Shown here one piece after another: positions 23,527-48,549 of a stretch of 64,000 nt of DNA. A program made the translations under genes and the position numbers. The stretch is from Alphaproteobacteria bacterium. Lineage in GTDB: Bacteria; Pseudomonadota; Alphaproteobacteria; TMED109. Below the pieces are notes generated by a model. That model saw only the letters and a list, made by a program, of their open reading frames with translations, searched no databases and was not told where the DNA came from. Location: NCBI GenBank assembly GCA_022825705.1, contig JAJDWH010000024.1, positions 1-64,000 of the forward strand, given 5' to 3'. Each line of letters opens with the position of its first letter. Within the stretch, counting starts at the first letter, position 1.

Positions 23527-24224
23527 ATCGAAGCTCCATTGGTTCCATTTGGCATCCTAGCATGAAGCCAGAAGGAATCATGTATCGAACGTAGTATCGA
23601 GGCCCGAGAACTCAGGGCTAGCAACAGTCTCGTGAAATCTCTTGGAATCCGGCAAATTATCCGGGCAAGTGTTGACGCGATACCGAAAATGAAAGAGTTC
23701 CGTTCGAAGCTCTGATCAGCGACAGCAAGGCGACCAACTCTATATCGCGACGAATTATGGAAGTTCCCGAGATATGGAAATCATTTGTCGGGTTGGTGGT
23801 GCTTCGCGCAAGTACCGTTCCCCGCCCAATGACGCAGAGATGCGCGTGGCCGGCGAACCAGTCCACAATTCCGCGATAACTGGGAGCCTCGCGCCACATG
23901 CGCTGGACTGCAGGATGCTCTCCCCGGCACCGCCTGATCCCCGAAGCTCCAGATGTGTCAGTTGCCAAGTGGCCGGGGTTCGCCCTCAACCAGAGCTCAA
24001 ACGGCTTTTCTTGTCTGCTTATCCTCCGCTCGCGCAGCACTTCGCGGGCGTGATTTATGGGAGCGACTTGACTGTCCCAGTGGATCGGCCGATTCCCGGA
24101 ATCGGGGGTGCTTCGGGTCACGTTGGACACCCGCCAAACTGGCGGTCCGCGAAGACCTCGTCCGCCGCCGGCGCTGCGGCCCAATCCCGACGCCTGATTG
24201 GGTGGGGGCCCAGGTCCGAGCCGG
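23527..24224. other. Gene-poor region next to tRNA-Thr
   Basis: About 700 bp on the 3' side of the minus-strand tRNA-Thr. A 199-codon frame (23657-24256) exists but begins inside the tRNA and has no recognised similarity. A tRNA 3' flank is a usual integration site, but no integrase and no repeat of the tRNA end was found here. Confidence 0.4.
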
Positions 24225-24297
24225 TGCCGACGGAGGGACTTGAACCCCCGACCCACGCATTACGAATGCGTTGCTCTACCGTCTGAGCTACGTCGGC
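24225..24297 (-). tRNA. tRNA-Thr (anticodon CGT)
   Basis: On the minus strand a full cloverleaf can be folded: a 7-bp acceptor stem (GCCGACG/CGTCGGC), D-arm GCTC...GAGC, anticodon stem ACGCA/TGCGT with loop TTCGTAA (anticodon CGT, decoding ACG), and T-arm GGGGG/CCCTC. The discriminator base is A. The CCA end is not encoded. Confidence 0.95.
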
Positions 24298-47256: not shown

Positions 47257-48015
47257 ATGCCGTCCCAGCAAGCCCCCACTGCCGCAATGCTCGTGATCGG
47301 CAACGAGATTCTCTCCGGCCGCACCCAGGACAAGAATGTCGCGCACGTGGCAAAACGGATGTCTGATCTGGGAGTGCGGCTGTCGGAAGTGCGGGTGGTT
47401 CCGGATGTCCGCGATCGGATTGTCACCGCTGTCCAGGAACTGTCATCGGCTTGGGACTACCTGATCACGACCGGCGGCATCGGACCCACGCACGATGACA
47501 TTACGACCGAATGCGTGGCCGCAGCGATGGGGGTCGAGGTGAAGCGGAACGCCGAGGCCCACCGACGTCTCCGGGCGCACTACGAGGGTACCGAGATCGA
47601 ACTGAACGAAGCCAGGCTCCGGATGGCGAACATCCCAGTGGGGGCAACACTGATCGACAATCCGGTTTCCGCGGCACCCGGATTCCGGCTGGCGAACGTG
47701 TTCGTGTTGGCCGGGGTGCCGGCCATCATGAAGGCCATGCTCGCGGTCCTGGAGCCGCAATTGGTGCGCGGTCCGCCGCTTCGCTCGCGTACGCTCGTGG
47801 TGAACCGGCCAGAAGGGTTGATCGCAGACGACCTGGCAGCCGTCGCCGCGGATTATCCCGACGTCGATATCGGCTCATATCCCTTTTATCGCCCACCTGA
47901 TATCGGGACCAGCCTCGTGTTGCGCGCCACGGATTCTGAACGGCTCGGCCAGTGCGCTGATGCGGTGCGTCGGTTTCTGACCCGACTGGAAGCACCCTTC
48001 CGGGAGGAACCGTGA
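47257..48015 (+). CDS. Competence/damage-inducible protein A-like molybdopterin-binding protein
   Basis: A 252-residue protein of the MoaB/Mog-fold family: MLVIGNEILSGRTQDKN near the N-terminus and TTGGIGPTHDDITTE, the CinA N-domain signature. The C-terminal nicotinamide-deamidase domain of full CinA is absent, as usual for this short form. Members may hydrolyse ADP-ribose or related nucleotides. It is separated from tRNA-Leu by 28 bp. Confidence 0.9.
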   Translation: MPSQQAPTAAMLVIGNEILSGRTQDKNVAHVAKRMSDLGVRLSEVRVVPDVRDRIVTAVQELSSAWDYLITTGGIGPTHDDITTECVAAAMGVEVKRNAEAHRRLRAHYEGTEIELNEARLRMANIPVGATLIDNPVSAAPGFRLANVFVLAGVPAIMKAMLAVLEPQLVRGPPLRSRTLVVNRPEGLIADDLAAVAADYPDVDIGSYPFYRPPDIGTSLVLRATDSERLGQCADAVRRFLTRLEAPFREEP

Positions 48016-48043: not shown

Positions 48044-48353
48044 GCGGGCGTGGCGGAATTGGCAGACGCGACGGACTTGCAGGAAGTTGAGTGCCTGCCG
48101 GGAAACCGGCAGTGTAGAACCGCTCAAATTCGGGGAAAGCTTACCGGCATGGCCGCTGCTGATCCCGAGCCAAGCCTGCTTTCGGGCAGGAAGGTGTAGA
48201 GACTAGACGGGCGGCGCCTGGGGCCGACACACCGGCGACGGCGAAGGGATAGTCCAGACCACGAACGCGCCTGCAGCGCGGCGGCGAAAGCCGAAGTGGT
48301 ACGAAAATCCGTTTCTCCGGAGGAGAGTGAGGGTTCGAGTCCCTCCGTCCGCA
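48044..48353 (+). tRNA. tRNA-Leu (anticodon TAA), interrupted by a group I intron
   Basis: Exons at 48044-48078 and 48304-48353 join to an 85-nt class II tRNA. The acceptor stem is GCGGGCG/CGTCCGC, the anticodon stem ACGGA/TCCGT with loop CTTAAAA (anticodon TAA), the long variable arm TCTCC/GGAGA, and the T-arm GAGGG/CCCTC. The discriminator base is A. CCA is not encoded. The intron lies between the first and second anticodon bases (after U34), the position used in cyanobacterial and plastid tRNA-Leu(UAA) genes. Confidence 0.95.
48079..48303 (+). ncRNA. Group I intron (IC3-like) in tRNA-Leu(UAA)
   Basis: 225 nt, ending in the required terminal G at 48303 and following a U at the 5' splice site. 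The core elements can be read: P1 pairs exon ACUU with intron GAGU (48089-48092, G-U at the splice site); P2 is CTGCCGG-GAAA-CCGGCAG (48095-48112); P3 pairs CCGC (48120-48123) with GCGG (48211-48214); P4 pairs TCGGG with CCCGA; the P6-adjacent GAGCCAAGC is at 48168-48176; P7 pairs GACTA (48201-48205) with TAGTC (48250-48254). The stretch AAGGTGTAGAGACTAGACGG is characteristic of the Azoarcus/cyanobacterial tRNA introns. No ORF is encoded inside, as in other tRNA introns of this class. Confidence 0.93.
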
Positions 48354-48549
48354 CCCCGCCCCGCTCCGGCGACGGATGTCCCCGGACGCTGGAACAGGGT
48401 GGATCCGATTCGGCCCCCTAGTCCGTGTTCATGCGCCGGCAGGGCACGCGATCATCGGTCCTGCGAAGACAGCCCAATGCCCCGGCGCGGCCGCCCCGCG
48501 AACGATGGCCAATTGCGGGGCGGGCTGCGGGAACCGAACGAAAGCGTGC

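What the first reader, a model, noticed from the sequence alone, without database searches (positions are those of the whole stretch)
48044..48353. Group I intron in tRNA-Leu(UAA) of a proteobacterial-looking genome
The tRNA folds correctly only if 225 nt are removed from the anticodon loop. That segment contains the P1, P2, P3, P4 and P7 pairings, the GAGCCAAGC and GACTAGACGG core elements and the terminal G of a group I intron. The insertion after U34 is the same site as in cyanobacterial and plastid tRNA-Leu(UAA). Proteobacterial tRNA introns are better known in tRNA-Arg and tRNA-Ile; the Leu location here suggests either shared descent or lateral transfer.
Basis: partly seen in the sequence, partly recalled or inferred. 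Interest (0 to 1): 0.85.

Follow-up and report, generated by a model that had tools for sequence, protein, structure and literature searches.

The report
Self-splicing intron in leucine tRNA
A leucine tRNA gene in this alphaproteobacterium-like genome is interrupted by a small RNA of a well-known self-splicing class that turns out to be common at this site in bacteria, so the find is real but largely ordinary.

Summary
The gene at 48044-48353 is tRNA-Leu(UAA), interrupted after U34 by a 225-nt group I intron (48079-48303) of IC3 type. ARAGORN with introns allowed finds these boundaries; Rfam Intron_gpI hits at E 5e-7, below its curated cut-off. A hand-drawn P1-P9b structure of 62 pairs keeps 95.2% of cells paired over 54 Leu(UAA) introns, with two-sided changes at 41 pairs. 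Six of seven genus members (the window's included) carry it after a cinA-like gene; the seventh assembly lacks the locus. Within the genus no pair is broken and the intron changes less than its flanks. It is the only tRNA-Leu(UAA) found in the assembly, so splicing is very probably needed.

The Leu site is not unusual: a capped pattern scan typed 57 Leu(UAA) introns, 37 in records titled as proteobacterial, and 20 of 387 sampled genomes of the window's class matched over most of the gene. Three other genera of the family have an empty site after cinA. Gain versus loss, and shared descent with cyanobacteria versus transfer, stay unresolved.

More interesting: the same genome has a second IC3 intron in its only detected tRNA-Thr(GGU), a host I did not find in the papers searched.

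The parts
48044..48078 (+). 5' exon of tRNA-Leu(UAA), ends at U34
   Evidence: ARAGORN -i; cloverleaf placement
48079..48303 (+). 225-nt group I (IC3-type) intron, ends in terminal G at 48303
   Evidence: all 62 pairs of the structure are standard pairs in the window sequence
48304..48353 (+). 3' exon of tRNA-Leu(UAA) with A35 A36, variable arm, T arm, 3' acceptor strand and discriminator; CCA end not encoded (ACCC)
48075..48092 (+). P1: exon ACUU (48075-48078) with guide GAGU (48089-48092); U.G pair at the 5' splice site
   Evidence: U.G pair in 54 of 54 aligned introns; the outer A-U pair is missing in 9 of 54
48095..48112 (+). P2 stem with GAAA loop
   Evidence: All 7 pairs show two-sided changes, 91.8% of cells paired
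48120..48125 (+). P3 5' strand (partner 48209-48214)
   Evidence: 100% of cells paired, 4 of 6 pairs with two-sided changes
48130..48168 (+). P4 (48130-48135 with 48163-48168) enclosing P5 and P5a
   Evidence: P4 and P5 100% of cells paired; P5a 71.5% and absent in many rows
48169..48195 (+). P6 and P6a
   Evidence: P6 invariant; P6a 95.0% of cells paired, all 5 pairs with two-sided changes
48201..48205 (+). P7 5' strand GACUA (partner UAGUC, 48250-48254); guanosine site by family knowledge
   Evidence: 100% of cells paired over 54 sequences; the Thr intron of the same genome has GACCA/UGGUC, a compensatory difference
48209..48243 (+). P3 3' strand followed by P8 (48215-48218 with 48240-48243)
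   Evidence: P8 100% of cells paired, 3 of 4 pairs with two-sided changes
48259..48299 (+). P9 with P9a and P9b; P9b capped by GAAA
   Evidence: 93.5, 88.9 and 100% of cells paired
47257..48015 (+). cinA-like gene (MoCF_biosynth) directly upstream, the synteny marker used for the empty-site comparison
   Evidence: Pfam PF00994 5.7e-31; adjacency in relatives; the name cinA is recalled

Best explanation
A group I intron of the IC3 tRNA type sits between U34 and A35 of the only tRNA-Leu(UAA) found in the genome. The precursor is transcribed, the intron folds into P1-P9b, exogenous guanosine bound at P7 attacks after U34 at the U.G pair of P1, the freed U34 attacks after the terminal G at 48303, and the exons join to give the UAA anticodon loop. 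It shows no sign of an endonuclease gene and is conserved at one locus through the genus, which points to vertical inheritance there. Shown: anatomy, covariation, conservation in the genus, no second copy in the assembly. Inferred: the chemistry, splicing in vivo, and vertical passage. Not decided: when and from where it entered the lineage.
For: Intron-aware tRNA call; Intron_gpI E 5e-7 (5); 62 pairs over 54 introns, 95.2% of cells paired, 41 pairs with two-sided changes against a shuffle mean of 28.9 and at most 25 in slid versions (71; 46-row subset 95.7%, 40 against 24.3); same locus in 6 of 7 genus members, 93-98% identical over 310 nt to the window; all 62 pairs kept in all six; 5 of 120 paired against 25 of 105 unpaired intron columns vary, Fisher p 1.8e-5; in the two farthest congeners the intron is 90.2 and 91.1% identical while the 400 bases upstream (mostly cinA) are 75.5-77.5% and the 400 downstream 61.6-65.4%; 40 intronless tRNAs in the genome, none Leu(UAA). 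[quoted passage not shown]
Against: No transcript or in vitro data for this intron. The Rfam score is below the curated cut-off. UUA is rare (3 of 3763 codons in 12 ORFs of the window, 58), so weak splicing might be tolerated. The assembly is 93.59% complete, so a second, intronless copy cannot be excluded outright. One of five ARAGORN settings reads a tRNA-Cys (6). For the three nearest congeners the intron (95.6-97.8%) is not clearly more conserved than the upstream 400 bases (91.0-98.2%).
Confidence: 0.95

Rival explanations
1. The intron was gained in the window's genus (or its stem) by lateral transfer or by retargeting from another bacterial IC3 intron, after it split from the reduced-genome genera of its family.
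For: Empty tRNA-Leu(UAA) sites next to the cinA homologue in five genomes of three other genera of the family, and an intronless tRNA-Leu(UAA) in a fourth genus (G020; cinA link not seen); patchy occurrence in the class, 20 of 387 genomes in 17 families; the own-genus introns form a tight clade (100/100).
Against: The empty-site genomes are small (1.2-1.7 Mb), so loss there is as easy; no donor is identified; the tree has little signal (45 of 100 inner branches open).
Confidence: 0.45
2. The intron is an old resident of the alphaproteobacterial cinA-tRNA-Leu(UAA) locus, inherited vertically and lost many times.
For: A cinA homologue lies in the fetched stretch (up to 8 kb) of 8 of 118 named loci, six of them typed as Leu(UAA) and two untyped, and 2.3 kb upstream of the intron-bearing tRNA-Leu(UAA) of G036 in another family; all non-cyanobacterial Leu introns as one clade is not rejected (p-AU 0.149).
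Against: The free tree mixes Leu with other hosts: 11 label changes for Leu, at least 3 forced by well-supported branches. It would need very many losses given 20 of 387.
Confidence: 0.4
3. Recent transfer from cyanobacteria.
For: Same insertion site after U34; forced grouping of own and cyanobacterial Leu introns not rejected (p-AU 0.246).
Against: Cyanobacterial Leu introns are a separate clade (100/100), and the window's genus lies in a starred set of 36 non-cyanobacterial rows (99/96); window G+C 64.1% and intron 64.9% agree.
Confidence: 0.05
4. A decayed, non-splicing intron in a dead tRNA copy.
For: Rfam score under the cut-off; CCA end not encoded.
Against: Conservation pattern, all pairs kept in six species, no other copy found; tRNA-Thr(CGT) at 24223 also lacks an encoded CCA.
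Confidence: 0.03

Closest known systems
Group I introns of cyanobacterial and plastid tRNA-Leu(UAA) (IC3)
   Same: Same gene and same site after U34 in the 11 cyanobacterial loci typed, same helix order where aligned; described in PMC4033280 and PMC2729099, passages only.
   Different: Separate clade in the intron tree; core words differ: GACTCGACGGG in the four cyanobacterial rows of A4, GACTAGACGGG here.
Proteobacterial IC3 introns in tRNA-Arg(CCU) (Agrobacterium, Bartonella) and tRNA-Ile(CAU) (Azoarcus)
   Same: Loci with Arg(CCU) and CAU hosts fetched here share the core motif, by selection, and many are of similar size; the Bartonella intron self-splices (PMC7717549 passages). The three named examples themselves were not compared here.
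   Different: Arg(CCU) introns insert after U36; CAU hosts after U36 in 8 and after U33 in 6 of 14 (Ile and Met not told apart). This one inserts after U34.
tRNA-Leu(UAA) intron of a gamma-proteobacterium from the deep subsurface (Vepritskiy and others 2002; recalled, paper not held, not shown by searches)
   Same: Same gene in a proteobacterium, as recalled.
   Different: Other class; sequence not compared here.

Membership tests
Group I introns | Conserved core P3, P4, P6, P7, P8 with P3/P7 pseudoknot | tested here: met
   100% of cells paired for P3, P4, P6, P7, P8 over 54 introns; RF00028 E 5e-7
Group I introns | U.G pair at the 5' splice site and terminal G | tested here: met
   U.G in 54 of 54; G at 48303. 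In the other loci the exon U and the terminal G were required by the placement, so their invariance is by construction; the guide G was not required there
Group I introns | Curated Rfam cut-off reached | tested here: not met
   34.2 against 50 bits. The authors of PMC6125680 judged a single alignment such as RF00028 unlikely to capture the subtypes well (passage), so I do not count this as a defining failure
Group I introns | Guanosine-initiated self-splicing | not testable with these tools
   Needs an in vitro splicing assay
IC3 subgroup of bacterial and plastid tRNA introns | Small size, no P5abc domain, P2 and P9b GAAA loops, location in an anticodon loop | tested here: met
   225 nt, only a short P5a, GAAA in both loops; the criteria are recalled except the absence of P5a-d in IC3, stated in PMC11835236 (passage). 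No IC3 covariance model was run
Mobile group I introns with homing endonuclease | Intron-encoded endonuclease ORF | tested here: not met
   Seven ORFs of 20 aa or more overlap the intron, longest 76 aa on the minus strand and running into an exon; 225 nt leaves no room for a known endonuclease. The short ORFs were not searched

The most novel reading that the evidence does not exclude
IC3 tRNA introns retarget between anticodon loops: one bacterial genus here depends on two of them at once, in its only detected tRNA-Leu(UAA) and tRNA-Thr(GGU), and related introns also sit in tRNA-Thr(UGU), tRNA-Lys(UUU), tRNA-Lys(CUU) and tRNA-Asn(GUU). Thr and Asn hosts were not named in the papers I saw; a Lys(CUU) host was named once, for a cyanobacterium with a far shorter insert (PMC5733544). 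tRNA-Thr(GGU) reads ACC, a common codon (77 of 195 Thr codons in 12 ORFs), so its splicing would have to be efficient.
Probability: 0.5. Interest if true: 0.45.

Novelty: new member of a known kind. Interest (0 to 1): 0.3.

Why it matters
Default ARAGORN and Rfam at its cut-off make an essential-looking tRNA vanish from a genome although it is there. tRNA-Leu(UAA) introns are widespread outside cyanobacteria, so the shared insertion site alone says little about descent. With empty and filled sites next to cinA in one family, and two introns in one genome, gain, loss and retargeting become testable by denser sampling.

Tried and rejected
Plain minimum-energy folding: uninformative. Within-genus covariation: no pair with a two-sided change, too similar; conservation by position was used instead. 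G003 as an intronless congener: rejected, because neither a tRNA-Leu(UAA) nor the cinA orthologue was found in its assembly, only a distant paralogue. Intron tree as proof of origin: rejected, none of four forced clades was excluded (p-AU 0.129 to 0.349). Origin of the Thr intron from the Leu intron of the same genome: neither supported nor rejected (p-AU 0.349). The Leu site as new in proteobacteria: rejected. Several ARAGORN host labels (Phe, Ser, Cys, His, Arg gcg) were replaced by my own placement where it succeeded. Three loci typed His(AUG) were relabelled Arg(CCU) by hand, and two Leu-like loci set aside as 'Lother'. L049 came out as Lys(UUU) with Asn(GUU) as a tie and as Asn; L083 keeps its host but its 5' boundary differs between the two runs (intron 217 or 373 nt).

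Full report
What is there. The stretch 48044-48353 reads as tRNA-Leu(UAA) only if 225 nt are removed after U34. Exons are 48044-48078 and 48304-48353; the joined loop is CUUAAAA, anticodon UAA. Default ARAGORN and Rfam at its cut-offs report only two tRNA-Thr genes in the window. At relaxed threshold RF00028 matches at 34.2 bits, E 5e-7, against a cut-off of 50. Four of five intron settings of ARAGORN agree; one reads tRNA-Cys.

Structure. I wrote a P1-P9b structure of 62 pairs by hand; every pair is standard in the window. On alignment A4 (all 54 Leu(UAA) introns of at most 250 nt) 95.2% of cells are paired, 41 pairs show two-sided changes (shuffle mean 28.9, none of 500 shuffles as high; slid versions 19 to 25), and the covariation score is 0.371 against a shuffle mean of 0.123. 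An earlier count on 46 of these rows gave 95.7% and 40 pairs. Weak parts on A4: P5a 71.5%, the P8 extension 85.9%, P9a 88.9%, one P1 pair missing in 9 of 54. The structure was drawn on the window sequence, which by itself favours it over slid versions, and related rows can beat shuffles without structure; the size of the excess is what persuades. P1 has the U.G splice-site pair in all 54.

Conservation in the genus. Six of seven genus members carry the intron. In them 5 of 120 paired and 25 of 105 unpaired intron columns vary (Fisher p 1.8e-5), and no pair is broken. Against the two farthest members, intron identity is 90.2 and 91.1%, exons 97.6 and 98.8%, the 400 bases upstream 75.5 and 77.5%, the 400 downstream 61.6 and 65.4%; against the three nearest the upstream DNA is about as similar as the intron. 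Rfam finds 40 intronless tRNAs in the genome; their anticodons (Leu: CAA, UAG, CAG, GAG; Thr: CGU, UGU) include neither Leu(UAA) nor Thr(GGU). The assembly is 93.59% complete, and other expected tRNAs are also missing from the list, for instance Ile(GAU) and Glu(UUC), so sole-copy status is likely, not proven.

Neighbourhood. A cinA-like gene (PF00994) ends 28 bases upstream. In five genomes of three other genera of the family (G008, G011, G013, G015, G018) an intronless tRNA-Leu(UAA) lies directly after the cinA homologue: orthologous empty sites. A fourth genus (G020) has an intronless tRNA-Leu(UAA) whose link to cinA I did not see. In G003 neither the tRNA nor the cinA orthologue was found.

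Distribution. Of 119 occurrences 95 could be typed; 57 are Leu(UAA) after U34: 37 in records titled as Proteobacteria or members of it, 11 cyanobacteria, 4 Bacteroidota, 2 Bacilli, 2 Acidobacteria, 1 Eremiobacterota (many are MAGs, so titles may err). In a sample of 387 genomes of the window's class, 36 matched at E at most 1e-9 and 20 matched over most of the gene including the 5' exon, in 17 families, the window and two congeners among them (my count from its table). Of these 20, 16 were typed Leu(UAA), three were not typed and one (G376) was set aside. That the class is Alphaproteobacteria is my inference from the names of the loci with the nearest cinA and intron.

Origin. In the intron tree the cyanobacterial Leu introns form one clade (100/100) and the own-genus Leu introns another (100/100), the latter inside a starred set of non-cyanobacterial rows (first tree). 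Forced clades were not rejected: own with cyanobacterial Leu p 0.246, all Leu 0.129, non-cyanobacterial Leu 0.149, own Leu with own Thr 0.349. So neither shared descent nor transfer is shown.

Second intron. The same genome has an IC3 intron after U36 of tRNA-Thr(GGU) (L150). A matching stretch is present in all seven genus members, five of which I read in full. RF00028 did not find it at E up to 1. Its P7 is GACCA/UGGUC where the Leu intron has GACUA/UAGUC, a compensatory difference. Further hosts typed: Thr(GGU) in three records titled alphaproteobacterial or Magnetovibrio, Thr(UGU) in two, Lys(UUU) in two class relatives, Lys(CUU) in one, Asn(GUU) in one with a tie in one run. No pair count was made for these. 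Papers seen in passages name Leu(UAA), fMet, Arg(CCU) and Ile(CAU) hosts; one also claims Arg, Gly and Lys introns of 22 to 49 nt in cyanobacteria. I found no report of Thr or Asn hosts in searches, which cover open-licence papers only.

Verdict. A real, very probably active IC3 group I intron in an indispensable-looking tRNA; a new member of a known kind at a common site. The second intron in tRNA-Thr(GGU) is the more interesting part.

Noticed in passing
L150:1420-1722 (minus strand; G000 contig C34 near 368348-368486): Second IC3 group I intron in the same genome, in the only tRNA-Thr(GGU) found, after U36; matching stretches in all seven genus members; missed by RF00028.
   Followed up: partly
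L156:862-1095 and L159:1109-1369 (minus): Related introns in tRNA-Lys(UUU) of two class relatives; they group with a tRNA-Lys(CUU) intron from an acidobacterial record, L092.
   Followed up: partly
L048 and L049: IC3-like introns in tRNA-Asn(GUU) of two actinobacterial records (ARAGORN labels; my routine typed only L049, as Asn and as a Lys/Asn tie).
   Followed up: no
window 48354-48356 and 24223-24297: The CCA end is not encoded for tRNA-Leu(UAA) (ACCC) or tRNA-Thr(CGT) (ACCG), but is for tRNA-Thr(TGT); the two farther congeners encode ACCA on the Leu tRNA.
   Followed up: partly
family f1, genomes G007-G027: The window's genus (2.5-3.8 Mb) sits in a family whose 21 other sampled members are 0.8-1.7 Mb, with A+T-rich flanks at the tRNA-Leu locus where read.
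   Followed up: no
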